57,420 bases of DNA from Herbaspirillum sp. (GTDB lineage: Bacteria; Pseudomonadota; Gammaproteobacteria; Burkholderiales; Burkholderiaceae_D): the NCBI GenBank assembly GCA_028291765.1, contig JAQGNR010000093.1:1-57420 (forward strand), written 5' to 3'. Positions 13,303-36,204 of this stretch are shown in pieces; the stretch's first letter is position 1, and every line of letters starts with the position of its first letter. A program made the position numbers and the translations under genes. The notes below the pieces were generated by a model, which was given only the letters and a program-made list of their open reading frames with translations, ran no database searches and was not told the DNA's origin.

Positions 13303-14457
13303 TCAGAGCAGGGCAGCCTTCTTCAGATAAGTGCGCAGAATATTCCTGCTGATCGCAAGCTGTTTGGCAGTGCGCACCTGGTTTCCCTGATTGCTCTGCC
13401 ATGCCTCGCCGATCAATTGATGCTGCAATTGGTCGAACGAGACGACATCGCCGGATTCCAGCAAAGAGCGCCACGCACGCAGCAACGCGGCATAAGCGGG
13501 TGCGGATGAGATAGTGGCGTTTGCAGCGCCGGCGGGTTTGGCGGGCGGCGACTGTTCCACCCATGCAGGCAGACACAAATCGCTCACCAGAATCTGATGC
13601 TGCCGCGACACCAGCAGCGCGCGATGGATCACATTTTCCAGTTCACGGATATTGCCCGGCCACGGATAGTCGAGAAGCGCCCGCTGGGTTTGCGGCGCCA
13701 GCGTGAATTGCTCCAGACCCAGCCGCTTGACATACATTTTCAGGAAGTGATGCGCCAGCGGCAGAATGTCGCCGGCGCGTTCGCGCAGCGGCCGCAGCGG
13801 CAAGGTGACCACTTGCAGACGGTAGTACAGATCTTCACGGAAACGGCCGGCGCGCACGGCTTCGGCCAAATCGACATTGGTCGCCGCAATCAGGCGCACA
13901 TCGATCCGGACCGGCCGCCGGCCCCCGAGCCTTACCACCTCGCGTTCCTGCAATACTCTCAGCAGCTTGACTTGCATCGGCAGAGGCAGATCGCCGATCT
14001 CATCGAGGAACAGCGTACCGCCGCTGGCAGTTTCGAACCAGCCGGCTTTCGATTGCATCGCCCCGGTAAATGCGCCGCGCTCATAACCGAACAATTCACT
14101 CTCGATCAGGGTTTCCGAAAACGCGCCGCAGTTAACCGCCACGAAGGCTGTATCGCTGCGATGGCTGAGCGCGTGGATATGACGCGCGACCAGCTCTTTG
14201 CCGGTGCCGGTTTCGCCGACGATCAACGCGGTGGCTTCGCTGGGCGCGATACGCTTGATCAAATCCTGCAATTGCAGCGACTGCGGATCGGAAAAAACGA
14301 AAGCCGTGGCGCGCACCAGCAAACTCAACTGTTGCGAGTTGCGAAACGCGATCAGGGTCGACGCGCCTTCATTGGAGGCATCGAGCGGAACCACGCCCGA
14401 ACTACGTAAATGGTCAGTGGATGCGTTGACGGGAAAATCATGCGGTAAAAGGTTCAT
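13303..14457 (-). CDS. Sigma-54-dependent transcriptional activator without receiver domain (SfnR/PspF-like)
   Basis: 384 aa. A short non-conserved N-terminus (about 55 residues) is followed directly by the AAA+ core: Walker A GETGTGKE (81-88), the sigma-54-contacting GAFTGA loop (128-133), Walker [13 protein letters not shown], and arginine-finger region [10 protein letters not shown] Fis-type helix-turn-helix closes the protein ([20 protein letters not shown]). There is no response-regulator receiver, so activity is probably set by its own level or a partner, as for SfnR of dimethylsulfone metabolism. It ends the ABC/flavoprotein cluster (117 nt after permease 2), and two sigma-54 promoters precede those genes, making it their likely activator. 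Confidence 0.9.
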
Positions 14458-22883: not shown

Positions 22884-22964
22884 TGCAAGCGAGACATGCG
22901 TCGATCATTGACTTCGAATGAATTAAGGCCCAAATTCAGACCCATTCGTGTAAAGGAGTTCGCC

Positions 22965-23243
22965 ATGCAATCCATCGCCAACATTAAGTCAATTTCCTAT
23001 TTGAAAAGCCATGCGGCGCAAATTTCCGAAGACCTGGAAATGAATGGAAGCCCATTCGTTATCACCCAGAACGGCGAGGCCAGCATGGTGATTGAAAGCA
23101 TCAAACAATTTCAGGAAAAGGAAGAACTCATTGCCGCGCTGAAAATCATTGCCTTGGGAGAAAAAGATCGCCTGCAGGGTAAGGGCCTCACCGTTGATGA
23201 ATCTCGCGCACAACTTCGTGCTGCCCGTCAGCGCCGTAAATAA
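22965..23243 (+). CDS. Phd/YefM-family antitoxin
   Basis: 92 aa from ATG 22965, chosen for the AAAGGAG 8 nt upstream. The N-terminus SISYLKSHAAQISEDLEMNGSPFVITQNGEASMVIESIKQF is the Phd/YefM DNA-binding dimer fold; the C-terminal helix (LTVDESRAQLRAARQRRK) is the usual toxin-neutralising arm. It overlaps by one nucleotide the start of the toxin gene, which is frameshifted, so it may be an orphan antitoxin now. Confidence 0.9.
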   Translation: MQSIANIKSISYLKSHAAQISEDLEMNGSPFVITQNGEASMVIESIKQFQEKEELIAALKIIALGEKDRLQGKGLTVDESRAQLRAARQRRK

Positions 23244-23562
23244 TGGCCGTCATCATTCTGCCCGATGCGCAAGAGGACTTGCTCTCGCTTCAGGAGTATA
23301 TGCTGGATAAACGGGGTGAGATCGAGTGGCTGAAGGCCGAGGACGAGATTTTTGCAAACTGCAACAGATCGATGCCGAGATCCACCCAGGCGCTGCTATA
23401 AAAGAGTTGGCATCGGTTGGCATTTTTGAATATCAGAACATTTTTACATCGCATCACAAGCTGGTTTACCGACGAATTAATGATGACATCTATGTGTATG
23501 TCATTGCGGGGCATCGGCAAGACTTCCCTACTCTTTTGATGAAGCGGTTATTGAAAAAATAA
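23243..23562 (+). pseudogene. ParE/RelE-family toxin, frameshifted
   Basis: Frame 1 from ATG 23243 gives AVIILPDAQEDLLSLQEYM and on to EDEIFAN, then a premature stop at 23398-23400. The rest of the toxin (KLQQIDAEIHPGAAIKELASVG to the ParE-like YVIAGHRQDFPTLLMKRLLKK) is in the -1 frame. Inserting one T in the T5 run at about 23348-23352 restores a continuous protein of about 106 aa. Either a real one-base deletion, a sequencing undercall, or (least likely) programmed frameshifting. Confidence 0.88.
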
Positions 23563-23594
23563 CTCCCAATTTAATACTTATCCCTGAGATTATC

Positions 23595-23648
23595 CCTGGA
23601 ATATTCATCGGATCGTACCTCTTGATCAACACGAGTCAATATTCCAGG
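23595..23648. repeat. 11-bp inverted repeat between convergent TA loci
   Basis: CCTGGAATATT (23595-23605) and AATATTCCAGG (23638-23648) with a 32-nt spacer, between the ends of the frameshifted ParE gene and the convergent HTH antitoxin gene. There is no T-run, so a terminator function is uncertain. Confidence 0.6.
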
Positions 23649-23664
23649 CAATGCAACAGCAGCA

Positions 23665-24114
23665 TTACGCCAGCATGTGGCTCAGCGATTCAAAACCGTT
23701 TTTTTCGATCAATCGAAGCACGATCGCAGCTGGCCCCTTGACAGGGTTGGCGCCATTTTCCCATTTTTTTACGGTCGAAGCGCTTGTCCCCATCTGCTTT
23801 GCAAGAACCGGCTGGCTTACGTGCCATTTTTCACGAATGCGTCTAACTTGATCAGGACTCACAACCGGCAACTCAACGATGCAAGTTTCGTCAAACTTCC
23901 GCATAGTTTGCTTGTCAATTACACCAGCCGCGAGCAACCCCATGGCGGTCTTGTGGATATTTTCAGAGATGGCACTACGCGCGACCTTCGCGACTTTCTT
24001 TACTTCAGCATCAACGGTCCGAACCCTTGCTTTCGGCCTTAGTGTCTGCGCCGCCGTCGTCGCTTTACTTTTTCCCGGCCGAACGGTCGGTTTCGCTAAC
24101 GGTTTATTTTTCAT
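23665..24114 (-). CDS. Helix-turn-helix antitoxin (HigA/NadS-like)
   Basis: 149 aa. A Lys/Arg/Ala-rich N-terminal 45 residues precede a conserved core: RKFDETCIVELPVVSPDQVRRIREKWHVSQPVLAKQMGTSASTVKKWENGANPVKGPAAIVLRLIEKNGFE. The HTH (VSQPVLAKQMGTSASTVKKWENG) and the P-V-K-G-P-A segment are those of XRE antitoxins paired with PF06296-type RelE toxins. It overlaps the end of the toxin gene by 11 nt. Intact, while its toxin is frameshifted. Confidence 0.88.
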   Translation of the reverse strand: MKNKPLAKPTVRPGKSKATTAAQTLRPKARVRTVDAEVKKVAKVARSAISENIHKTAMGLLAAGVIDKQTMRKFDETCIVELPVVSPDQVRRIREKWHVSQPVLAKQMGTSASTVKKWENGANPVKGPAAIVLRLIEKNGFESLSHMLA

Positions 24115-24519
24115 TGCAAATCTCCATCAATTCACGAGCTATCATCAGCTTAGAGATACCTTCATCAGAGAGCGCAGCATAGATTTTCGCCAGCGCCTGA
24201 TAATCGTCTAGTTCAGCATCGGTAATATTGTCCAATTCGTTCTTTTGAAACAAACCCACAAAAATCCAATTATTCGACCCATCCCGACAAAGCACAATTG
24301 CACGATCAAGATTGATGTTGTTGATGCGCTTCTTATACACGCCACCTGGAAGTTTCGTTTTCCCACCAGCGATCAATGCTTGACGGCCTTACATACATCG
24401 GCATCAGAAATGCCCCGCTTCGCCGCAACCTTTGAGGCTTCAGCAGTTTTGAAAATACGCTTTACGGTGGCGACAGGTGCTGAAGCAGAGACAAGTTTGG
24501 AGGGCTTTTTCTTTTGCAT
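24104..24519 (-). pseudogene. RelE-family (PF06296-like) toxin, frameshifted
   Basis: The first part, ATG 24519 to a stop at 24373, encodes VKRIFKTAEASKVAAKRGISD and on to DADVCKAVKH. The second part, in another frame from about 24376 to 24104, encodes LIAGGKTKLPGGVYKKRI and the remaining core (AIVLCRDGSNNWIFVGLFQKN, then LMIARELMEICNEK). One extra T at CATTGATC (24373-24378) would join them as KAVKH-LIAGG, giving the expected about 139-aa toxin. So the gene is broken by a single base. Its antitoxin follows on the same strand. Confidence 0.85.
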
Positions 24520-25062: not shown

Positions 25063-25083
25063 ATCAATAACTAAGAATTATGC
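25063..25083 (+). repeat. Left 21-bp inverted repeat (IR-L), candidate recombination site
   Basis: Perfect inverted match to 29297-29317. It contains the start ATG (25080-25082) of the STAND nuclease gene, preceded by AACTAAGAATT. Read in reverse it has the layout of a tyrosine-recombinase core, GCATAA-TTCTTAG-TTATtgAT, with roughly symmetric arms about a 6-7 nt centre. Confidence 0.85.
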
Positions 25084-28000
25084 GTGTATCTGGCAAGGCA
25101 ACGGAGTCGCCAATTGATCTCTCCCATCTCAGTGGGATCGAGTATCAAAAGCGCGTTTTCGAATGCCTTGTACGTCGAGTATTTGGTGATCCACGCGTGT
25201 TCGATATCGGCAACTACGGCAAAGGTGAGGTCGATTACGTCGTCCGGGAACGTCCCGGAAGCGGAATGCTCGCGACAGACCGCTTCCACTATTTCGAGTG
25301 CAAGAATTATTCGCGATCGTTGGACTTAGACAGCGTGGCAAAAGTCATGGTGGTGGCCGTGTCGGACCAGCCTCTGAGTGTCCATGTCGTTTCCCGTACG
25401 CCGCTTCAACCGCAAATCAGGAAATACGCCTCGCGGCTGTTCAGTTTCGATGGCAGCGCCAACCCGATCTTCCGAAGCGTCGAATTCCGCCATTGGCAAA
25501 CCGGAGCGATCCTCGGCGACGACGAGGGAGAAAGCGAACCCGGTGTCAAGAGCGTCGCCGGGTTGGGCTTCATTGCGCCGGGTTTGAGCGAAGTCCATTG
25601 GTGGTTATCCGAATGTGCGGCATTTTCCGAAGTGGAGATCGCATCTTCCGAGTCGGCGCGGCAACCGCTGAATGTCCAGCTCGGAGCCCTGTTGACGCTC
25701 ACGATGGAGTCTGCGGATGCCGGCTCGGCTGAAATATCCCTCGATGGGTTACCCAATGAAAGTTGGCGATATGTGACACCACTGGACGGTTCCGAGAAGG
25801 GGCACTATCTCATCGATACGGCCTATCTCGCCACCGGCGAAGACTATCGCATCTCCCTCAAGATGATGCATCAGACAACTGATCACCGTATTCCGCTGGT
25901 ACATCTGCGCGCCAGCGGCGCAGCAAGTTTTTTGCCGGAACTGCGTACGGAGGAAATCGCCGATCTAATCGCTAGGATGGGATTTTCCGGCGACACTCGC
26001 CTAATTCTAGTCGAGGGAGAAGCTGGCGTTGGTAAAACCCATTTGATCGAAAAGGTCGCCGAGGAGCTACGCGCAAAGGCCAGCTTTGACATTCTCCGTT
26101 TCACCGTCCCGGAAGAGCCGGACGATGAGCTCATGGCATCTGTCATCCGTAATTGCCTGGCACCCGCCATTGAAAAAAGCGCTTTCGGCGACCTAGTAAG
26201 TAAGATCGAATCGGCACTGCTTCGACAGGAAAGCGGCGGGAGCCTGAAGATGGATTTCCGCTTGTTAGTTCGTGCGGCGAGCCGCATGGGACCCAGAGTG
26301 ATCGTCTTACGAGATTGTCACCAGGTGACGCCAAAGCTTGCCGATGAAATATGGATGCTGATTTCGGTTCTGGATGACTCAAGCTGGGGCGGCATCCGTC
26401 TGGTGCTAGAGTACCGCCAGCCCGATGCCCACGCCAATTCCGCATTGCAGGGCTTGCTTCGCAAGATCCGTTTGAACATTCGTAAGGTTCTGCTTGAGAG
26501 GCAGATCACGCCGCTTGGCCGTGAGGCGTTCTACCGCTTCTCCAAACTCTTGTTCGCCCATATCACGGACGAGCTCATCGCTTGCCTGTTCAACAGGACG
26601 GGAGGAGTCCCGCTATTTCTGGACAGCTATCTGCTCCGTCTCCAGAACCTGGGCTTGATTAGGCGCGGCGAAAAGGCTCCGCTCTTCGAGATTAGCGAAC
26701 CTGCTCGTATTCTCGCGGACAGTCTGCCCGAGGGACGGCAGATCATTCTCGAAGAGCGTGTCAGAACAGGCCTAGCCCAAGCATTTCCCGAAGACTGGAA
26801 GCAATGGGCTATCGTATTGGGCTTGATCGCAACGGCCGACAATACCTACGGACAATCCTTGATACTCGACGCACTTGGCATGTCTGAGCGCGAATCGCAT
26901 GTATTTCAGGCAATGCTGAAGGAGACCGGCATCGGATCCGCGCTGCCCGACGGACAGATCGTATTTCGCCATGACTTGCTGCGCGAAGCGGTTGCTGCTG
27001 TCGCTACTGCCGTAGAGGAATTCGCATCTCGTGCCCGGCAAGTGGCCGATGATCTTCTCGCCCACAAGTTGCCGTCGGATGAAGTCAAGGTACGGGCCAT
27101 CAGGGTGAAGATATTTGCCTTGCTGAATGACGACGTGTCTTGCGAGCTGGAACTGCGTAATGCCCTCAAGGCGGCACAAGAAGTGCACGACTACGGACGG
27201 ATAGTCTCATTCCTGAACCATCTCTTGCCGCTGTTGAAGGATCGCCCAAACGTCCATGAGCGCTTGGTCTTAATGAAGGAATTGGCTTGGGCCAACTGGG
27301 TGTCGGATTCGCTATTGGTGGCGCGCGAACGCTATATCCAATTGGCGACTGAGGCTGAACGCAATGCGGAGGGCGATTTTTCCTTTAGCGAAGCAATTGC
27401 CACCGACGCGTATCGGCGTGCCATCGGCCTGGATCTGGAACTGATGGAGCCATATGTGTTCTTGGAGAATGTCATTTCCGTCTTGGGAAGGCGCCAAGAC
27501 CATGTGACATTCAATTCCATCCTCAATCGCCTGGTGTTGTTCTGTGCCAGATTCGGACTCCCCGAGGACGGATATCGATTCGCTCGCTTGGCATTCGACT
27601 ATATCGGCGACGGCAAGCGCGAGAACGAAGGCAGCGTTCTTTGTTCGGAATTGGGCATGCTGCACGCTTCCTCGTCGCCTGAGACGGCGTTAGACTTATT
27701 CAGGCGGGCACACGCCATGGCACATGGAAAGCCGGAGCAAAATGGGACGATGTTGGCGATTCATGTAAATGAATGTTTGTATCATGGCAAGGCATTGGAT
27801 ATCGCGCATTTCGACACGCTGTGGGCCGAATGCTCGGAACACCGGCTAACAGAGCCATTGGCACGTGCCAGCCTCCTCAGGGGGACATTGCTGTTGCGCG
27901 AAAGTAACCTGAAGAGCGCAACGCACTGGATCGAACGCACGGCGACTATGGTGCAGCTTTATCACATGAAGCAATTCGAATTAGCGATCCTCAATGACCA

Positions 28001-28379
28001 GGTCTTGCATGCTTTGCTCTCGGGCGATACAACAACCGCGACGAATATCTTTGGCAAATTGGTGCTTGAGTTCGAACGCGTGGAAGCGCAGACTTCCCGC
28101 GCTAGGACGCTCGTGGAAAAAACATTTGAAGCTGCCGAAAAGGCAGCGTCCACCTTGCTTGCCGAGCCGTCCGCGATCGAACGCCCAGCCGAGCCACCGG
28201 CACATTGCAATCCCGCCGCGGAAATGCGCCAGAACATCGTGGCGTTCGCCTCGTTACTTGGACTGGATGAGATCGCGCAGACCTATACGGCCGCATTGCA
28301 GGCATGGCCTTGTCCCGAAGTGAGCGAGCATCGCCATGTGGAAGTCCGCGGCGTCAAACTAATATTGGGCGCCTATTGA
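25080..28379 (+). CDS. Mrr-like nuclease/STAND ATPase with TPR-like C-terminus (Avs-like defence candidate)
   Basis: 1099 aa in three parts. Residues about 15-130 are a restriction-endonuclease-like domain: YQKRVFECLVRRVFGD, then GKGEVDYVV and FHYFECKNYS, the D...E-x-K catalytic pattern (D52, E73, K75). Residues about 285-640 are a STAND-type P-loop NTPase: Walker A GEAGVGKT (313-320), Walker B VIVLRDCHQV near 408, then winged-helix-like DGQIVFRHDLLREAV. From about 650 on, helical TPR-like repeats. N-terminal nuclease plus STAND plus repeat sensor is the plan of Avs antiphage proteins. The ATG lies inside the left inverted repeat. No promoter-proximal gene precedes it on the plus strand. Its 3' end overlaps the convergent GT9-like gene by 21 bp. 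Confidence 0.85.
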   Translation: MRVSGKATESPIDLSHLSGIEYQKRVFECLVRRVFGDPRVFDIGNYGKGEVDYVVRERPGSGMLATDRFHYFECKNYSRSLDLDSVAKVMVVAVSDQPLSVHVVSRTPLQPQIRKYASRLFSFDGSANPIFRSVEFRHWQTGAILGDDEGESEPGVKSVAGLGFIAPGLSEVHWWLSECAAFSEVEIASSESARQPLNVQLGALLTLTMESADAGSAEISLDGLPNESWRYVTPLDGSEKGHYLIDTAYLATGEDYRISLKMMHQTTDHRIPLVHLRASGAASFLPELRTEEIADLIARMGFSGDTRLILVEGEAGVGKTHLIEKVAEELRAKASFDILRFTVPEEPDDELMASVIRNCLAPAIEKSAFGDLVSKIESALLRQESGGSLKMDFRLLVRAASRMGPRVIVLRDCHQVTPKLADEIWMLISVLDDSSWGGIRLVLEYRQPDAHANSALQGLLRKIRLNIRKVLLERQITPLGREAFYRFSKLLFAHITDELIACLFNRTGGVPLFLDSYLLRLQNLGLIRRGEKAPLFEISEPARILADSLPEGRQIILEERVRTGLAQAFPEDWKQWAIVLGLIATADNTYGQSLILDALGMSERESHVFQAMLKETGIGSALPDGQIVFRHDLLREAVAAVATAVEEFASRARQVADDLLAHKLPSDEVKVRAIRVKIFALLNDDVSCELELRNALKAAQEVHDYGRIVSFLNHLLPLLKDRPNVHERLVLMKELAWANWVSDSLLVARERYIQLATEAERNAEGDFSFSEAIATDAYRRAIGLDLELMEPYVFLENVISVLGRRQDHVTFNSILNRLVLFCARFGLPEDGYRFARLAFDYIGDGKRENEGSVLCSELGMLHASSSPETALDLFRRAHAMAHGKPEQNGTMLAIHVNECLYHGKALDIAHFDTLWAECSEHRLTEPLARASLLRGTLLLRESNLKSATHWIERTATMVQLYHMKQFELAILNDQVLHALLSGDTTTATNIFGKLVLEFERVEAQTSRARTLVEKTFEAAEKAASTLLAEPSAIERPAEPPAHCNPAAEMRQNIVAFASLLGLDEIAQTYTAALQAWPCPEVSEHRHVEVRGVKLILGAY

Positions 28380-29300
28380 GCGGGTCACATCGCTGACCCA
28401 GTTGATGGCAATTCGACGAATTTCTCCCTGGGATTCACCTAGCAACATCAGATTCTTATTCTGAGGATAGCTCCAGCGCGCAAATGCTGCCGGGCCCATG
28501 CCGGGCTCGGTGTCGATTTCCGATTTGCGTATTGGATCCCACATCACCATGGCCGGCTTACCAAATGCTGTGGCGACGTGCGCCACACTACTATCGAAAC
28601 CCAAAAACATATCCGAGGCCCATACGAGCGCCATCATCTGGCGTAGTGTCGTGCGAAACCTCTTGGTGGAGAAACCTTTATCTTCTTTGCCATGCATTCC
28701 GACTTCGACAACGCTTATCCCCGCAGGAAGTGCTGAGAGCAAGTGATGCCATTCATCCTCGTACCAAGGATGCTCAACCTTGGGTGAACTAGTTCCGTAG
28801 GGATGTAAGCAAAGGACTGGTCGCGGCAATCCAGAGAGTTTCAGCAAGGCTTCTCGGCATTCCTCTTCCGACAGAAAAAGGCTGGGTCGGATCAACCGTG
28901 GAACGACACCGTATTCAGCGCAGATGTTGGAAATGATGTGACCAAAGTGGCAATGCCGTTCATGTGATGCATTGACCAGCGCCATGCTCTCAGGCGACAT
29001 ATCCGCTAAATCGAAGATTTTTCCGACGAACGGATTGCCCCTCCATATCGGAAACGGCTCCTCATCCTCCAGCGTCCCGACCCCATCGGTCGGTTGAATC
29101 GGGCCAGTCAACAGATTGATCGGCCTGCCGTAGCGCATGGCGACTTCTTCAACTAAGCGGGTATACATCAATACGTCGCCGATTCCCGTGACATTGGGGA
29201 TTGCCAGATCAGACTTGAACTTATGACAGATTAATTGGAATGGATTTCTGGCTATAAGAGCTGTTCCTGCGGGGATTTCCGACTCCTGCTGAATAAGCAT
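28359..29300 (-). CDS. Glycosyltransferase family 9-like protein (heptosyltransferase-like)
   Basis: 313 aa. The C-terminal half has GT9 character: LCLHPYGTSSPKVEHPWYEDEWHHLLSAL, then LVWASDMFLGFDSSVAHVATAFGKPAMVMWDP, comparable to the D-S-G-x-x-H-x-A...GKP motif of ADP-heptose:LPS heptosyltransferases. The N-terminus (IPNVTGIGDVLMYTRLVEEV) fits the first Rossmann half. No signal peptide or TM. Activity as a sugar transferase is an inference; the substrate is unknown. Its ATG lies within the right inverted repeat, 22 nt after the recombinase stop on the same strand, so it is read as the distal gene of the recombinase transcript in the present orientation. Confidence 0.78.
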   Translation of the reverse strand: MLIQQESEIPAGTALIARNPFQLICHKFKSDLAIPNVTGIGDVLMYTRLVEEVAMRYGRPINLLTGPIQPTDGVGTLEDEEPFPIWRGNPFVGKIFDLADMSPESMALVNASHERHCHFGHIISNICAEYGVVPRLIRPSLFLSEEECREALLKLSGLPRPVLCLHPYGTSSPKVEHPWYEDEWHHLLSALPAGISVVEVGMHGKEDKGFSTKRFRTTLRQMMALVWASDMFLGFDSSVAHVATAFGKPAMVMWDPIRKSEIDTEPGMGPAAFARWSYPQNKNLMLLGESQGEIRRIAINWVSDVTRSIGAQY

Positions 29301-29317
29301 AATTCTTAGTTATTGAT
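29297..29317 (-). repeat. Right 21-bp inverted repeat (IR-R), candidate recombination site
   Basis: Perfect inverted copy of 25063-25083, holding the ATG (29300-29298) of the GT9-like gene in the identical context AACTAAGAATT-ATG-C. It lies 5 nt beyond the recombinase stop codon (29323-29325). Outside the 21 bp the flanks differ and no target-site duplication is seen. Confidence 0.85.
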
Positions 29318-29322
29318 GCATC

Positions 29323-30279
29323 TCAAGCAGCTTCCAACCGCTTTCTTATATTTACCTGAGAAATTCTGTCTCTTAGAGCATGATCAGCCACATGTGTATA
29401 TATTTCAGTAGTGGTAATGCTTGCGTGCCCAAGGAGCTTTTGAACGAAACGTATATCGACTCCTGCTTCTAAGAGTTGCGTCGCTGCTGTGTGGCGCAAC
29501 ATGTGTGGTGTTATCCGGCGACTCAATTGAGCATTCTGGGCAAAAACACGAACGATCCGCCGTATATATTGATCTGTTGCCGGACGTCCCAGCCCATTCA
29601 CCAATAACGCATCAGATATCTCGCGGCCGAATTTCGTCATAGCGCCTTGTCGGTATGCGTTAACTCTTGCCGATGTCACTTTATCTGGGAATACAACCTT
29701 CCTTTCTCTATTACCTTTACCGAGAATATGAATTTGTCTCAATCCATGGTCAATATCCTGAATGCGAACCTTAACCAGCTCTCCTACCCTTATTCCAGTA
29801 AGCGTCAGAATTTCGATGACAAGTCGTGCAGTAAGTTGATCCCAATTCCTACGAGCCCATGTGGCCGCAGCATCCATCGAAAGGCCTAAGAGCATACTTT
29901 CTGGATTCAAAGCTACCAGCGTCCTTATCTCGCTCGTCTGCAAATTTCGCGGAAGTCTTTTAGGAAGCTTGATGCTTAAGTGGATACGTTCCAGAAAATT
30001 AGACCTAATAAGTTTTCGTTGAAATAGCCAGCGAACAAAAACTTTAATGCAGGCGACGCGCCGCTTCACAGACGATGCTTTTAGATCCGGATCGCAGCGC
30101 CAAATGTGAATGGCACTCTCAATCCATGCTTCAGAAAAATTGGCCAATTGTTTTTTTGGCGCGACCTGTATCTTAAATTTCTCTAAATCCCCACGGTACG
30201 CGCTAATAGTATGTGGGCTTAGTTTCTTCTCGATTTCACAATGCTCCAAGAAAAGTACGCAAGCTTCAGATAAATCCAT
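29323..30279 (-). CDS. XerC/D-like tyrosine recombinase
   Basis: 318 aa, the usual size of simple Xer-type recombinases. An N-terminal SAM-like core-binding domain (FLEHCEIEKKLSPHTISAYRGDLEKF) precedes the catalytic domain with all active residues: R in LTGIRVGELVKV, K in GKGNRERKVVF, H-x-x-R in ITPHMLRHTAA, H in LLGHASITTTEIY and nucleophile Y in EIYTHV. GGGAGG lies 7 nt before the ATG. The right inverted repeat sits directly after the stop and the gene reads toward it, so inversion of the 25063-29317 segment is the predicted reaction. It is 5.8 kb from the tRNA and not tRNA-adjacent as island integrases usually are. Confidence 0.93.
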   Translation of the reverse strand: MDLSEACVLFLEHCEIEKKLSPHTISAYRGDLEKFKIQVAPKKQLANFSEAWIESAIHIWRCDPDLKASSVKRRVACIKVFVRWLFQRKLIRSNFLERIHLSIKLPKRLPRNLQTSEIRTLVALNPESMLLGLSMDAAATWARRNWDQLTARLVIEILTLTGIRVGELVKVRIQDIDHGLRQIHILGKGNRERKVVFPDKVTSARVNAYRQGAMTKFGREISDALLVNGLGRPATDQYIRRIVRVFAQNAQLSRRITPHMLRHTAATQLLEAGVDIRFVQKLLGHASITTTEIYTHVADHALRDRISQVNIRKRLEAA

Positions 30280-31745: not shown

Positions 31746-32786
31746 ATGAGATATGAAACGTTTGATCAAGTGATGGCATCCCTACATAAGAAAAAACGGC
31801 AAGCCAATCTCTTATTGGGGAACGGATTTAGCATGGCATACGACCCAGAGATATTTTCCTACAATGCGCTGTACGACTTTATTTCAAGTTTGAATGATGA
31901 AGTCATGGTCAAAATTATGTCTTCAATGAAAACCAAAAACTTCGAACTAATGATGAGCCAGTTAGAGACGTTTTCGGCGTTACTTAAAGCATTCGATGCC
32001 GAAATAGCTTTGCAAGATGCAATATTGGGGGCGAACAAAAAACTGAAGAAAAGCCTTTTAGATGCCATAGAGGCACTTCATCCAGAGCATGTCTTTAAGA
32101 TAAGCGAAGCAAGCGCAGCCGCATGCGCTAAATTTTTAACTCGTTTTCTGGATGCTAACGGACAAATTTATACTACAAATTATGATTTGCTTTTGTACTG
32201 GGTTTTAATGCGACAGGACATTAAAACTGTCGATGGCTTTGGCAGAGAATTGCTTAATCCAATTGAAGCTGGACAGGGTGAGCAAGAAGAATGGTCCGAT
32301 TTGATATGGGGGATAAATAAAAGCAAACAGAACATTTTCCATCTGCACGGATCGCTTCCGCTTTTCGATACCGGCACTCAAATTATAAAAGAGCAATATA
32401 ACGAAAATGGATATTTACTGGAAAACATAAGCGCCCGTCTTAATGCAGATGAATATCCAATTTTTGTCACCGCAGGGAATGGAGATGACAAGCTTTCTCA
32501 AATCAAACACAACCCCTATCTGTCTGATTGTTACGATAATCTCAGCATGGTTGACGGCTCAGTGATAACGTTCGGCTTCGGTTTTGGCGAATACGACGAC
32601 CATATCATTGCCGCACTCAATAAGGCCGCGAAGTTCGGGACCAAGACGCCTCCCAAATTATGGAGTATTTATATCGGAACTTACTCAGACCAAGATGTTG
32701 ACTACATCGAAAGCATTACCCATAAATTCCACTGTAAAGTGAATACTTTCGATGCCAAAACGGTAAACCTATGGGAAAAGAGATGA
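31746..32786 (+). CDS. DUF4917/SIR2-like protein (defence candidate)
   Basis: 346 aa. The N-terminus ANLLLGNGFSMAYDPEIFSYNALYDF carries the GNGFS nucleotide-binding loop of SIR2-like folds. Further motifs in order are GQIYTTNYDLLLYW, NIFHLHGSLPLF, and near the C-terminus SVITFGFGFGEYDDHIIAALNKA, matching the DUF4917 layout. SIR2-like domains in antiphage systems hydrolyse NAD+; whether this one does is untested. AT-rich compared with the core genome, flanked by other defence-type genes. Confidence 0.85.
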   Translation: MRYETFDQVMASLHKKKRQANLLLGNGFSMAYDPEIFSYNALYDFISSLNDEVMVKIMSSMKTKNFELMMSQLETFSALLKAFDAEIALQDAILGANKKLKKSLLDAIEALHPEHVFKISEASAAACAKFLTRFLDANGQIYTTNYDLLLYWVLMRQDIKTVDGFGRELLNPIEAGQGEQEEWSDLIWGINKSKQNIFHLHGSLPLFDTGTQIIKEQYNENGYLLENISARLNADEYPIFVTAGNGDDKLSQIKHNPYLSDCYDNLSMVDGSVITFGFGFGEYDDHIIAALNKAAKFGTKTPPKLWSIYIGTYSDQDVDYIESITHKFHCKVNTFDAKTVNLWEKR

Positions 32787-32798
32787 CAATAAATTCCG

Positions 32799-32906
32799 AT
32801 GCAAAAAACCAGAACGCTGACATTGAAATGTTTTTTTAACGTCTATGCAGACTGGATTCACGGCGACGATGACGATCGCAAGATGGCAAAATCGAAAAGT
32901 CCTTGA
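32799..32906 (+). CDS. Possible 35-aa ORF after the DUF4917 gene
   Basis: ATG 32799 to TGA 32904-32906: QKTRTLTLKCFFNVYADWIH, then GDDDDRKMAKSKSP. The acidic D-run and the close spacing (12 nt) to the DUF4917 stop make it worth noting, but it has no good ribosome site and no recognised family. Confidence 0.2.
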   Translation: MQKTRTLTLKCFFNVYADWIHGDDDDRKMAKSKSP

Positions 32907-33271
32907 AGCAAATTATCCCTGGATAATCCCCAAAAAAAAGCCCGAAGCGCTTTCCTAAGAATAGCTGTAAGCCTTTCAAATAAAAGGATCATATTATTCA
33001 AAAATAAATAATGCCCCATGCCCTCAAAAAATTTCCTCGCCAGCTTTATATGTGTAGAGGAAGGTCTCGTACTTTCCTGAAAACAAAAATCCACTAATCA
33101 ATACTTAACTCTATTCTGAATTTCCACAAATTCAGATATAAAGGCGCATCGGAAAAAACTCTTAAAAATAAGTGTGCTTTGCAATTGACTGACCTATCAC
33201 CAGCGTCGAATAATGCCTAGGAGTTCCACGGCGATCACTCCAATCGCCTGCCTGATCAAAAACTGGATTCG
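32907..33271. other. AT-rich intergenic region
   Basis: No convincing gene; a minus-strand frame (32858-33094) starts at GTG without a ribosome site. It probably contains the promoter of the KAP gene. Confidence 0.4.
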
Positions 33272-33327
33272 ATATAGGAAGCGCAGGCTAGTACTCGCCG
33301 ATGAGATGCTGTCCTCGCTTCCTATAT
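33272..33327. repeat. 12-bp inverted repeat upstream of the KAP NTPase gene
   Basis: ATATAGGAAGCG (33272-33283) and CGCTTCCTATAT (33316-33327), perfect arms, 32-nt spacer, ending 39 nt before the ATG at 33367. Candidate operator or leader hairpin for the KAP/2TM operon. Confidence 0.65.
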
Positions 33328-33366
33328 AACTCAAATGATTTCAATCGGTATCCAAAAGGGAAAAAA

Positions 33367-35091
33367 ATGTCTCGTGAAATTGTAAGTCAAGTTATTCGTA
33401 AATTCCTTAGTTCACATAATCCCGAAGTACTGGCGATCACGGGCGATTGGGGTGTTGGAAAAACATATGCAATTCGCGATATCGTCAATAAGTTTGAAGG
33501 AGAAAGCGCATTAAAAAAATATTCTTATGTTTCTTTATTTGGCCTTCATTCCATAGTCCAACTTCGTTCCGCTATTTTTTTAAGATCGGAGGTATTCCCA
33601 TATGTTAAGTGGGAAAAGTGTCGTTTGAAACGTTACTGGAATAGCATAAAAGGATGGATCTTCAATGAAAAAATTCGCTCCAGCTATAGCCATGCGAAGG
33701 AACTAATCCCCTACGGAGGGAAACACGTTGTCGCCGCCATGGAGGTAGTTGCAGGGTCTTTTGTTAAGAATACGATAGTTTGTTTTGATGATCTAGAACG
33801 TCTGGGTAGTGGAATAAAAATTGAAGATTTCTTGGGACTTGTTTCTGAGTTAAAAGAACAACTCAACTGCAAGATAATTATCATACTCAATGAAAAACAA
33901 CTCGAATCTAATGAATCAAAATTTACGAAATATAGCGAAAAAATCATTGATCAAAAATTGTCATTTTCTATCACTGCCTCTGACGCTATATCGCTTGGGC
34001 TTCCCGAAAAAATACCTCTTCGAGAACTCGTGGTCCAAAATATAATTAATTTAGACATAACCAATATTCGGGTTATTCAAAAAATATCCAAAGCGTTATC
34101 GATCATCTATCCACTTATTGATACGCATACAGCAGGAGTGAAAAAACGGGCCGCAAGTATCATTCCTATTTTCGCAGCGGTGCTATACGAATCTGCTCGT
34201 GGCTTCCCCTCGCTAAATGAAGCTTTAGCTTACAACGTTTATAGCAATCTAAGAAAGAAGACGGTGGATAGAACAACCGAACAAACCCAAAAATCTGACT
34301 TGGATTGGACTGCCATGTTTGAACTGTGCAACTTCAAGCATGCCGATGAATTTGATCGTGCAATTCTTTTGTTAATGCAAAATGGTTTTTCTGACGGTTC
34401 GCTACTTGTTAAATATGCGAATGAGCGCGACGCCCTTCACAACCGCGATGCGTTGGCGGAAATATATACGGAATCATGGAATCTATTTCATGACAGGTTT
34501 GACGTAACGAGCGAACAGTTAGCAGATAGTTTTTTGGTATCAGTGAAACAAGCTGCAATTACAATTGCTCCTTTGAACATCAATAGCGCGGTCGTATTAA
34601 TAAGAAGCTTAGGACTCGAAGAAAAAGCGGACGAAATTATTGAGACTTATATAAAGTTACATCAGGATACTCCATCGATATTTGATCCAAAAAATTGGTT
34701 TTCTCATGATGACATTACCGATCCTGGCATGCGCAAACGTTTTTCTGAATGTCTCACTGCTTCCAGTAATGAATTAACCCTACAACAAGCAGCGGATATG
34801 ATTATCGCGAATGACCATTGGGATGACGCGATTGCTCGGGCACTATCTATTGCGTCGCCCGATGGCATAGTTGAACTTCTTATGAACAACCAAGGAAGCA
34901 ATTTATCTCGATTAATCCAAGGTATTCAAAATCCACCAGTCCCTTTGGAAGTTCGAGCGGTAATCCAACCATTGATTACCGAAGCACTTGAGAAAATAGG
35001 CAGATCATCCCCATTAAACGCAATACAAGTGAATCGCTATGGCGTGGATGTAAAGGCAGCCTCAGCGACATTTTCGAAGCAAATGCCATAA
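33367..35091 (+). CDS. KAP-family P-loop NTPase
   Basis: 574 aa from ATG 33367 (AAGGG 6 nt before it; a longer frame from 33301 lacks one). VLAITGDWGVGKTYAI (Walker A at 26-33) and IVCFDDLERLGSGI (Walker B, about residue 141) are the KAP signatures; IIIILNEKQLESNESKF is the sensor strand. No strong TM insertion is visible, unlike many KAP proteins. The C-terminal half is helical and unrecognised (repeat-like). KAP NTPases are common in phage-defence gene neighbourhoods. The 70-nt gap to the following 2-TM gene suggests an operon. AT-rich. Confidence 0.88.
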   Translation: MSREIVSQVIRKFLSSHNPEVLAITGDWGVGKTYAIRDIVNKFEGESALKKYSYVSLFGLHSIVQLRSAIFLRSEVFPYVKWEKCRLKRYWNSIKGWIFNEKIRSSYSHAKELIPYGGKHVVAAMEVVAGSFVKNTIVCFDDLERLGSGIKIEDFLGLVSELKEQLNCKIIIILNEKQLESNESKFTKYSEKIIDQKLSFSITASDAISLGLPEKIPLRELVVQNIINLDITNIRVIQKISKALSIIYPLIDTHTAGVKKRAASIIPIFAAVLYESARGFPSLNEALAYNVYSNLRKKTVDRTTEQTQKSDLDWTAMFELCNFKHADEFDRAILLLMQNGFSDGSLLVKYANERDALHNRDALAEIYTESWNLFHDRFDVTSEQLADSFLVSVKQAAITIAPLNINSAVVLIRSLGLEEKADEIIETYIKLHQDTPSIFDPKNWFSHDDITDPGMRKRFSECLTASSNELTLQQAADMIIANDHWDDAIARALSIASPDGIVELLMNNQGSNLSRLIQGIQNPPVPLEVRAVIQPLITEALEKIGRSSPLNAIQVNRYGVDVKAASATFSKQMP

Positions 35092-35161
35092 CCCCCTTCA
35101 TAAATTCGATACTCAATAAATTATATTCAACCTTGCCTTAATAACAAAAAGAGGGAAAACA

Positions 35162-35794
35162 ATGGCAAAAGAAAAATTCAATGTTCCGCTCGCGGTTAAA
35201 TTAATTTTTTCTATACTCGCAATTACGGTGTTTTCTTTTGCGTTCTGCGCGATGACAAATAAAATCACCGTGGCCGAATTGCCCTCTTGGTTACAGGCTC
35301 TTTGGGGTCTTATAGCAATTCTTGCAATCCTTGGTATGGGTATATATCAAGTTGATTCGGCCAAAGAACAAGCTGAGGCCACCGACCAAATTTTGGTCAG
35401 GCGTCGTTACGCTGCGCTACGAGCAATTCTTGATGATGCTCATGACCAATGCGAAAGTCTGCGGCCTGAATTTCATGACCATGATGAAGCTTTTGGAATT
35501 TTCTCGTTTGTTTTAAATTTTGATGAGCGTGCCTTTAATGGTGTTCTAGAGACAATTGAACGTGTGCCACTTCACGAATTAGATAATTATCAAATCGTAA
35601 AATCATTATCTGGCATTCGGAATCTACTCATTAACATAACCTCCATAATTTCATTCGCATCGGATCAAGCCAGAAGCAAAATTGGCGAAGAGGGCGGCAC
35701 GCCTGATTACGCCATAAAAGATCGGGGCCGGATTCTTATAGATGAAGTGAATTCGTTATATAAAGCAGCTATTACCGAAATCAGTTCAACCTAA
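35162..35794 (+). CDS. Two-TM membrane protein, partner of the KAP NTPase
   Basis: 210 aa, GAGGG 7 nt upstream. Two TM segments (residues about 10-30, LAVKLIFSILAITVFSFAF, and 40-60, WLQALWGLIAILAILGMGIY) followed by a cytoplasmic helical domain starting with coiled-coil-like DSAKEQAEATDQILVRRRYAALRAILDDAHDQ. No family recognised; it resembles phage/defence-associated membrane proteins with a short two-TM anchor. It likely acts as membrane anchor or effector for the adjacent KAP NTPase. Confidence 0.72.
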   Translation: MAKEKFNVPLAVKLIFSILAITVFSFAFCAMTNKITVAELPSWLQALWGLIAILAILGMGIYQVDSAKEQAEATDQILVRRRYAALRAILDDAHDQCESLRPEFHDHDEAFGIFSFVLNFDERAFNGVLETIERVPLHELDNYQIVKSLSGIRNLLINITSIISFASDQARSKIGEEGGTPDYAIKDRGRILIDEVNSLYKAAITEISST

Positions 35795-36113: not shown

Positions 36114-36204
36114 TGGCGGAGAAAGGGGGATTCGAACCCCCGGTAGGCTATGAACCTACACACGCTTTCCAGGCGTGCGACTTAAACCACTCATCCATCT
36201 CTCC
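36114..36204 (-). tRNA. tRNA-Ser(GGA)
   Basis: 91 nt with encoded CCA. Acceptor GGAGAGA pairs TTTCTCC (one G-U), anticodon stem CACGC/GCGTG with loop CTGGAAA gives anticodon GGA (reads UCC/UCU), a long class II variable arm, T arm GGGGGTTCGAATCCCCC. Its 3' end faces the accessory block, and a partial copy of this end lies at 11786-11830. Confidence 0.96.

What the first reader, a model, noticed from the sequence alone, without database searches (positions are those of the whole stretch)
25063..30279. Possible DNA-inversion switch choosing between an Avs-like nuclease and a GT9-like gene beside a tyrosine recombinase
Seen: perfect 21-bp inverted repeats at 25063-25083 and 29297-29317 bound a 4.25-kb segment. 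The segment is filled by two convergent genes whose ends overlap by 21 bp. Each repeat contains the ATG of the gene it borders, in identical upstream context (AACTAAGAATT-ATG-C). A complete tyrosine recombinase gene ends 5 nt outside the right repeat and reads toward it. Known: tyrosine recombinases invert DNA between inverted sites with short symmetric arms and a 6-8 nt centre, as in phase-variable switches; the repeat has that form (GCATAA-TTCTTAG-TTATtgAT). Inference: inversion would exchange which gene, starting at the same ATG, lies directly behind the recombinase transcript, giving an either/or expression of a defence nuclease and a glycosyltransferase. I know of no described system of this design.
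Basis: partly seen in the sequence, partly recalled or inferred. Interest (0 to 1): 0.93.

Follow-up and report, generated by a model that had tools for sequence, protein, structure and literature searches.

The report
Recombinase-driven flip switch between two genes
Beside a recombinase gene, two unrelated genes face each other between two mirror-image copies of a short DNA site; the same layout, with different gene pairs, recurs in bacteria of three phyla, and the recombinase likely flips the pair so that only one gene at a time would be read, which would make it a reusable either/or switch.

Summary
It is no one-off. Of 31 recombinases of this group examined (window included), 22 have the same site at their stop codon and 18 of these show the whole design (Pseudomonadota, Acidobacteriota, Saccharibacteria). 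The 7-nt centre of the site is identical within each of 19 loci but differs between loci, as strand exchange requires. Homologous gene pairs occur in both orientations in different genomes. Two assemblies hold the inverted junction too (99-nt and 41-nt shared ends). Homologues of the window's two genes often sit on contigs of segment size (22 of 51; 20 of 99), recombinase homologues rarely (1 of the best 120). Pairs are exchanged between recombinases. The site centre usually carries a ribosome-binding-like stretch before the start codon. Recombinase activity, exclusive expression and an anti-phage role of the STAND protein are inferred; the window's own inverted isomer was not seen. Ten literature searches returned no description. 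Verdict: a real DNA-inversion family, a new variant of a known kind.

The parts
29323..30279 (-). tyrosine recombinase gene (318 aa), reads toward the proximal site
   Evidence: PF00589 E 1.4e-37, PF02899 1.9e-12; XerC model 211 bits against a cut-off of 335; catalytic residues invariant in A1
29297..29317 (-). proximal exchange site (21-bp inverted repeat), 5 nt behind the recombinase stop; 7-nt centre at 29303-29309
25063..25083 (+). distal exchange site, inverted copy; 7-nt centre at 25071-25077, ATG at 25080-25082
28359..29300 (-). proximal gene in this isomer: GT9 (heptosyltransferase)-like protein, 313 aa, start codon inside the site
   Evidence: PF01075 25.5 bits against cut-off 22, matching residues 216-253 only; 99 homologues
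25080..28379 (+). distal gene in this isomer: 1099-aa STAND NTPase with N-terminal nuclease-like domain and C-terminal TPR-like array, start codon inside the site
   Evidence: PF13191/PF13401; invariant E73-C-K75, nearly invariant D52 and invariant GxAGxGKT at 313-320 in a 38-row alignment; model pLDDT 83; Foldseek matches STAND-TPR 6mfv, Avs3 8dgc, Apaf-1 3sfz, Avs5 9jap
28359..28379 (.). 21-bp tail-to-tail overlap of the two convergent genes
   Evidence: 3' ends overlap in 13 of 19 loci and lie within 30 nt in the other six
25063..29317 (.). the segment that would invert (4255 bp, sites included)
   Evidence: the STAND homologue P0003 sits on a contig of exactly 4255 bases

Best explanation
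The window holds one member of a family of two-gene segments bounded by inverted copies of a short site next to a tyrosine recombinase gene, and the recombinase likely inverts the segment so that either of two convergent genes would be placed, with its start codon, directly behind the recombinase gene. Shown: the architecture in this locus and 17 others with an intact adjoining recombinase; identity of the 7-nt centre within each locus; both orientations of homologous pairs in different genomes; both junctions in single assemblies of two genomes. Inferred: (1) the neighbouring recombinase does the exchange; (2) strand exchange in the 7-nt centre rebuilds the same leader in front of whichever gene is proximal, because the centre usually contains a Shine-Dalgarno-like stretch (AAGAA, AGGA, GAGGA), the start codon mostly follows at once, and the recombinase stop codon lies inside the site in seven loci; (3) only the proximal gene is translated well, riding on the recombinase transcript, while the tail-to-tail ends leave little room for terminators, so the far gene is read only antisense; (4) in this window the choice is between a nuclease-STAND protein, likely a defence sensor, and a glycosyltransferase, likely a surface modifier. 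In the isomer sequenced here the glycosyltransferase is in the read position.
For: Architecture: site within -9 to +48 nt of the recombinase stop, then two gene units tail to tail, then the inverted site, in 18 loci. The 7-nt centre is identical in 18 of 18 loci read by the script against 34 of 306 comparisons between loci, 0 of 100,000 permutations as good; the window adds a 19th. Opposite orientation of homologous pairs (phmmer within a set of 40 cargo proteins): L018 against L204, both genes along nearly their whole length (E 4.5e-67 and 1.8e-81); L018 against L184, more weakly (1.4e-18 and 5.9e-5); L013b against L019 (1.7e-20 and 2.3e-30). Both junctions in one assembly: in G980, contigs C49 (recombinase side) and C86 (a flank with no recombinase in the 4.5 kb read) end in the same 99 nt of site plus gene start; in G786, contig C430 begins with 41 nt identical to the recombinase tail plus site, joined to the distal gene. 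Contig ends at the site: 5 of 23 loci within 120 nt of the recombinase stop, 0.13 expected. Contigs of segment size (4,000-4,450 bases): STAND homologues 22 of 51, GT9 homologues 20 of 99, recombinase homologues 1 of the best 120. In Undibacterium sp. TJN25, whose records are not labelled MAG, STAND and GT9 are each listed on a contig of 4252 bases and the recombinase on one of 3083.
Against: No inverted isomer was seen for the window's own locus: only two copies of the site in its genome, on one unbroken contig. 9 of the 31 recombinases do not show the site in the expected place and sense: L188, L189, L190, L049 and the L023 recombinase have none there (L190 has one upstream of its recombinase), L016 has at most half a site, L183 and L193 have one in the opposite sense without a partner, and the L011 contig ends just before it. 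Contig breaks at recombinases also occur outside the family: 2 of 28 non-members against 0.21 expected. Segment-size contigs could partly reflect one pair sitting in several strains or loci, and I could not read those contigs. No promoter-like site was found before the recombinase and the upstream region is not conserved, so the co-transcript is unproven. Two loci deviate: in L186 the site lies 48 nt behind the recombinase, and L010's distal frame does not start at the site.
Confidence: 0.84

Rival explanations
1. Cassette capture rather than switching: the recombinase acquires and exchanges two-gene cassettes at its site, as integrons or p-dif modules do, and orientation is an accident of capture.
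For: Cargo and recombinase are decoupled. The window and L009 recombinases are sisters (99/98; 70% identical) yet carry unrelated pairs, while L009 shares its pair with L012 (68% and 72% identical by BLAST; recombinases 58%). In L013 two tandem recombinases, 98.6% identical over the part compared, carry unrelated pairs and different site centres.
Against: In the 19 loci with both sites it is always a convergent arrangement between two inverted sites, never an array of cassettes in one direction; both junctions in one assembly; capture alone does not readily explain segment-size contigs.
Confidence: 0.12
2. Frozen relic: the pair was once invertible or mobile, but the recombinase no longer acts and the genes are expressed independently.
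For: The window's own locus shows one orientation only; some relatives lack a site (L188, L189) or have a broken adjoining recombinase (L023).
Against: The recombinase is intact with invariant catalytic residues, both sites are identical over 21 bp, and close homologues of both cargo genes sit on segment-size contigs, P0003 (89% identical) at exactly 4255 bases.
Confidence: 0.06
3. Termini of a small mobile element: the inverted sites are its ends, and the recombinase moves the segment between genomes; the two genes are ordinary cargo.
For: The region upstream of the recombinase is not conserved among the window and its four nearest relatives.
Against: The recombinase lies outside the repeats; recombination between inverted sites inverts and does not excise (established for site-specific recombinases); the start codons mostly sit in or just behind the sites.
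Confidence: 0.04

Closest known systems
Gene-swapping invertible segments of phages (Mu G segment/Gin, P1 C segment/Cin; recalled; Gin, Cin and the P1 C segment are named in passages of PMC12529663)
   Same: An inverting segment whose two halves hold alternative genes read in opposite senses, with the recombinase gene beside it
   Different: Serine recombinases and alternative versions of the same tail-fibre genes; here a tyrosine recombinase and two unrelated complete genes that change from locus to locus
Moraxella pilin inversion (Piv; tfpQ/tfpI; recalled; one search was read as a listing only)
   Same: Either of two genes is joined to a fixed expression start by inversion
   Different: Two homologous pilin genes and a DEDD-type recombinase (recalled); here unrelated proteins and a site that can include the start codon
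Tyrosine-recombinase phase switches: uropathogenic E. coli (PMC6083910), RecV and CwpV switches of C. difficile (PMC2784873, PMC5386303), hsdS inversions and PsrA of pneumococcus (PMC4948785, PMC7096588); abstract openings seen in listings only
   Same: Tyrosine recombinase and inverted repeats
   Different: They flip promoters or regulatory stretches, or shuffle parts of one gene (partly recalled); here whole different proteins change places behind the recombinase
PinQ/e14 P-segment inversion against phage T2 (PMC12529663; passages read)
   Same: DNA inversion tied to phage resistance
   Different: A serine recombinase that inverts a segment in another cryptic prophage; [quoted passage not shown]
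Avs (STAND) anti-phage proteins
   Same: Predicted N-terminal nuclease-like domain, STAND NTPase, TPR-like C-terminus; Foldseek ranks Avs3 second and Avs5 fourth
   Different: No PADLOC match; TM-scores 0.10-0.17; phage recognition untested
p-dif modules and integrons (recalled)
   Same: Portable genes between recombination sites of a Xer-like recombinase
   Different: Dedicated recombinase next to the site, a 7-nt rather than 6-nt centre, one convergent pair per site pair, scores below the integron-integrase and XerC/XerD cut-offs

Membership tests
site-specific DNA-inversion switch | two identical sites in inverted orientation | tested here: met
site-specific DNA-inversion switch | cognate recombinase encoded nearby | tested here: met
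   intact tyrosine recombinase 5 nt away; its activity on the site was not tested
site-specific DNA-inversion switch | both orientations exist | tested here: met
   in relatives; not seen for the window's own locus
site-specific DNA-inversion switch | inversion changes expression | not testable with these tools
   needs RNA and protein data
XerC/XerD chromosome-resolution recombinase | score above the NCBIfam equivalog cut-off | tested here: not met
   211 of 335 and 195 of 330 bits
integron integrase | score above the NCBIfam cut-off | tested here: not met
   111 of 265 bits
Avs anti-phage STAND | match to a PADLOC-DB family | tested here: not met
   no family at E 1e-3
Avs anti-phage STAND | STAND-plus-TPR fold like Avs | tested here: inconclusive
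   Foldseek E 2.3e-8 to Avs3 and 6.5e-6 to Avs5, but TM-scores of 0.10-0.17, so only parts superpose
Avs anti-phage STAND | recognition of a phage protein and effector activation | not testable with these tools
   needs experiment
glycosyltransferase family 9 | Pfam gathering score | tested here: met
   25.5 of 22 bits, over 38 residues only

The most novel reading that the evidence does not exclude
A portable genetic toggle: a Xer-like recombinase chassis whose exchange site is at once crossover point, ribosome-binding site and start of the next gene, loaded with interchangeable two-gene cartridges (STAND immune sensor or membrane protein against glycosyltransferase, ATP-grasp ligase, methyltransferase, CDP-alcohol transferase or oxidoreductase), so that each cell commits to one protein or its partner, and cartridges circulate between recombinases across phyla.
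Probability: 0.6. Interest if true: 0.93.

Novelty: new variant of a known kind. Interest (0 to 1): 0.86.

Why it matters
Known inversion switches turn one gene on or off or swap versions of one protein. Here the same hardware would alternate two unrelated complete proteins and is reloaded with new pairs from genome to genome. The pairs themselves would then tell which functions bacteria keep apart: often an immune-type sensor or membrane protein on one side, a surface, lipid or peptide-modifying enzyme on the other. It would show a recombinase beside defence genes doing a regulatory job, and give a compact, self-contained two-state part for synthetic biology. It is testable at once by PCR on cultured carriers.

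Tried and rejected
Chance repeat: rejected. Ordinary XerC/XerD or integron integrase: scores below the cut-offs. Phage integrase with an att site: among the 80 viral relatives kept of 290 none carries the strict site, and a gapped site-plus-recombinase pattern in viral contigs found nothing. Other copies of the site in the genome: none. A conserved promoter before the recombinase: none found. The STAND gene outside the switch in the same order: none of the other 299 genomes carries the gene at all at E 1e-60, so that test was empty. Contig-end enrichment as sole proof: weakened by its control (2 of 28), so I rest the case on shared junctions and site identity. Folding the N-terminal domain alone was not done, so its nuclease assignment rests on the motif, on the strand/helix order of the model and on the Mrr_cat match of the L010 counterpart; residues outside 280-552 and 646-1092 were barely tested by the structure comparison. 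The ten literature searches listed no description of this design; two of them returned nothing at all, listings were cut at 8-15 papers, I read passages of one paper only, and most subscription papers and all preprints are outside that library.

Rows dropped before a count: the window's own protein in the STAND list; of the 40 loci the 28 that score as other recombinases, 14 of which were scored with viral ones and all of which serve as the control; 79 of 80 viral loci (only L049 passes the profile). A first tree held one row read in the wrong frame (L013b); it was corrected and only that tree is used. In one search the window itself was not matched by the script and was added. In one search distances beyond need were entered as a large number, the control uses distances from the match end (partial matches included), and L011 is counted as a member although its contig ends just before a site could be seen.
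Full report
WHAT IS THERE. A 318-aa tyrosine recombinase (29323-30279, minus strand) stops 5 nt before a 21-bp repeat; an exact inverted copy lies at 25063-25083; the 4,255 bp including both repeats are filled by a GT9-like gene and a 1,099-aa STAND gene that run toward each other and overlap by 21 bp. The whole genome holds just these two copies even with three mismatches allowed.

IT IS A FAMILY. A scan with the recombinase, a search of the family with the protein and searches with a 13-row profile gave relatives in a small share of genomes: 6 of 294 in the family, 3 of 350 in the class, 3 of 300 in the order, 6 of 297 in the phylum of L013, 8 of 240 in the class of L017, 1 of 172 in the phylum of L018; these tallies include the centre genomes and the sets may overlap. 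The profile sets them apart from the other tyrosine recombinases tried: rows of the profile 1e-109 or better, or 1e-79 to 1e-111 for five of them when left out; then L049 (1e-100) and L016 (1e-86); the next is at 1e-63. I took E 1e-72 as the limit; L186 (1.9e-73) is close to it. I examined 31 recombinases in all (the tree rows, window included). In 22 a site of the form GATAA-CTNNGNA-TTATC, with a few deviating letters, sits at -9 to +48 nt from the recombinase stop. In 18 of these the contig continues through the full design. In four (L164, L185, L191, L203) the contig ends in the site or 1-82 nt behind it. Of the other nine, L011 ends just before the spot, L183 and L193 have a reversed-sense site without a partner, L016 has at most half a site, and L023, L049, L188, L189 and L190 have none there. 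In L023 a pair of sites and genes lies further on, behind a recombinase remnant that another gene separates from the site; with it 19 loci have both sites. They come from Pseudomonadota (Oxalobacteraceae, Rhodanobacteraceae, Hyphomonadaceae, Devosiaceae and others), Acidobacteriota and Saccharibacteria.

THE SITE. In the 18 loci that the script could read (L023 included, window not), the 7-nt centre is the same in both sites of a locus in 18 of 18 cases, against 34 of 306 comparisons between loci (11 different centres); none of 100,000 shuffles did as well. The window makes it 19 of 19. Outside the 17-nt sites the two copies agree for only 0-5 nt outward and 0-8 nt inward, except L184, discussed below. 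Identical centres in inverted sites are what tyrosine recombinases need for exchange (established knowledge), so the sites have been kept alike by use or by selection. The recombinase's stop codon lies in the site in seven loci (offset -5 or -9). The centre usually carries a Shine-Dalgarno-like stretch and the start codon mostly follows in or just behind the right arm (reading it as a ribosome-binding site is mine; CTAGTAA in L162 is a poor one).

THE PAIRS. Each segment holds a tail-to-tail pair; ends overlap in 13 of 19 loci (up to 81 nt) and lie 1-30 nt apart in the other six. One side carries two genes in a row in L184 and L186. Pairs (names by Pfam, by homology, or by eye for 'membrane'): GT9 / STAND (window); GT2 / Mrr-STAND (L010); ATP-grasp / STAND-type protein (L009, L012, L018, L162, L184, L187, L204). 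In that last group the ATP-grasp proteins of six loci are homologous to one another, the L187 one has a sub-cut-off Pfam match only; the STAND-type partners of L018, L184 and L204 match one another and those of L009 and L012 match each other, but not across, and the L162 and L187 partners match none (L162 has a TPR match, L187 no Pfam match). Further: an unnamed 369-aa protein / STAND (L013, first module); methyltransferase and TauD / CHAT-STAND-WD40 (L186); CDP-alcohol phosphatidyltransferase / membrane protein (L013 second module, L019); FAD oxidoreductase / membrane protein (L014, L023); methyltransferase / unnamed (L017, L192) or GNAT-like by eye (L015); GT4 / small protein (L163). Of ten cargo proteins scanned against PADLOC six had no match, three a weak one (E 4.9e-4 to 7.8e-5) and L186 a CHAT and a repeat match. 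So 'defence' is a lead, not a result.

BOTH ORIENTATIONS. L018 has ATP-grasp next to the recombinase and STAND far; L204 has the reverse, with both genes homologous along nearly their whole length. L184 also has the reverse order, with weaker similarity on the STAND side. L013's second module and L019 show the same reversal for a different pair. Other homologous pairs (L009/L012, L014/L023, L017/L192) have the same order. Among the eleven loci with a STAND-type protein it is distal in seven and proximal in four.

BOTH JUNCTIONS IN ONE ASSEMBLY. In G980 the gene start behind the site is joined to the recombinase in contig C49 and to another flank in contig C86; the two contigs end in an identical 99-nt run, no recombinase is seen in the last 4.5 kb of C86, and the profile finds one recombinase in that genome. 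In G786 the contig that reads recombinase, STAND, ATP-grasp, methyltransferase starts with 41 nt identical to the recombinase's tail plus the site, now in front of the methyltransferase, which is the inverted junction. Exact shared ends of this kind are how an assembler cuts a sequence present in two arrangements (general knowledge). Two further contigs end in the site itself (L185, L203), and in G434 both flanking contigs stop 36 nt past their sites, without a shared gene start. Overall 5 of 23 loci have a contig end within 120 nt of the recombinase stop against 0.13 expected; the control of 28 other recombinases gave 2 against 0.21, so breaks alone are only moderate evidence.

CONTIGS OF SEGMENT SIZE. 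If both isomers are present, assembly should release the segment as its own contig, from one site to the other. Among 51 homologues of the window's STAND protein 22 have a longest contig of 4,000-4,450 bases, none lies between 3,000 and 4,000 or between 4,500 and 6,000, and 29 are longer (one of 6,099, 28 of at least 8,000); the homologue P0003 sits on exactly 4,255 bases, the length of the window's segment. For the GT9 partner it is 20 of 99, and seven lengths in that range occur in both lists; for the recombinase, which lies outside the segment, 1 of the best 120 of 7,140. Undibacterium sp. TJN25 has STAND and GT9 each listed on a contig of 4,252 bases, presumably the same one, and the recombinase on one of 3,083. 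A pair that sits in several loci or strains could also cause this; the exact size and the recombinase control favour inversion. I could not read these contigs.

CARTRIDGES. The recombinase tree joins the window with L009 (99/98) and puts L012 outside, yet L009 shares its pair with L012 (68% and 72% identical by BLAST; recombinases 58%) and not with the window. In L013 two tandem recombinases, 98.6% identical over the part compared, carry unrelated pairs and differing centres. Pairs are thus exchanged between recombinases, by a route not known.

THE WINDOW'S STAND PROTEIN. An alignment of 38 keeps E73-C-K75 invariant and D52 nearly so, a PD-(D/E)XK-like set (motif recalled), and the P-loop; the AlphaFold model (pLDDT 83, pTM 0.66) finds a STAND-TPR protein, Avs3, Apaf-1 and Avs5 as its four best Foldseek matches, with low TM-scores. 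The second look is led by eukaryotic TPR proteins for the C-terminal part and by Orc/RFC/TnsC-type ATPases for residues 280-552. A sequence search of solved structures gave only weak FtsY matches.

HOW IT LIKELY WORKS. The recombinase binds both sites and exchanges strands in the identical 7-nt centres; the segment turns over; the same leader now precedes the other gene. Only the gene behind the recombinase would be translated well. In this isomer the glycosyltransferase would be on and the STAND protein off. No promoter-like site was seen before the recombinase or reading into the far site, so the transcript is inference.

NOVELTY. Inversion switches and gene-swapping segments are long known; a chassis that toggles two unrelated whole genes with the start region in the exchange site and takes new pairs is, as far as ten literature searches reach, undescribed. 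I rate it a new variant of a known kind.

Noticed in passing
window 31746-35794: Beside the switch: a DUF4917/SIR2-like protein matching PADLOC candidate PDC-S21 (E 5.9e-106), a KAP-type NTPase matching PDC-S49 (1.2e-27), and an unmatched 210-aa protein, near a tRNA-Ser (36114-36204); looks like a defence island.
   Followed up: partly
window 22896-24376: Toxin-antitoxin-like genes left of the switch: Phd/YefM antitoxin, RelE-type toxin and HTH partner.
   Followed up: no
L013 7842-15807: Two complete switch modules in tandem with nearly identical recombinases, unrelated gene pairs and different site centres.
   Followed up: partly
L183 8980-8996; L193 1005-1022: A single site behind the recombinase in the opposite sense (one base longer in L193), with no partner found: perhaps emptied or ancestral loci.
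   Followed up: no
L190 1869-1885: A site-like sequence upstream of the recombinase, at the start of a divergent ATPase/hydrolase-like gene; none found downstream.
   Followed up: no
L023 9255-13262: Switch whose adjoining recombinase is a remnant (126 residues, 95% identical to the intact upstream copy), with another FAD-type gene between remnant and site.
   Followed up: partly
L010 13376-13430: The ATG directly behind the distal site is out of frame with the long STAND frame, which starts further in (ATG at 13376): a frameshift or a leader peptide.
   Followed up: no
L038, L040: Two recombinases outside the family also lie within 150 nt of a contig end; other inverting systems may hide there.
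   Followed up: no
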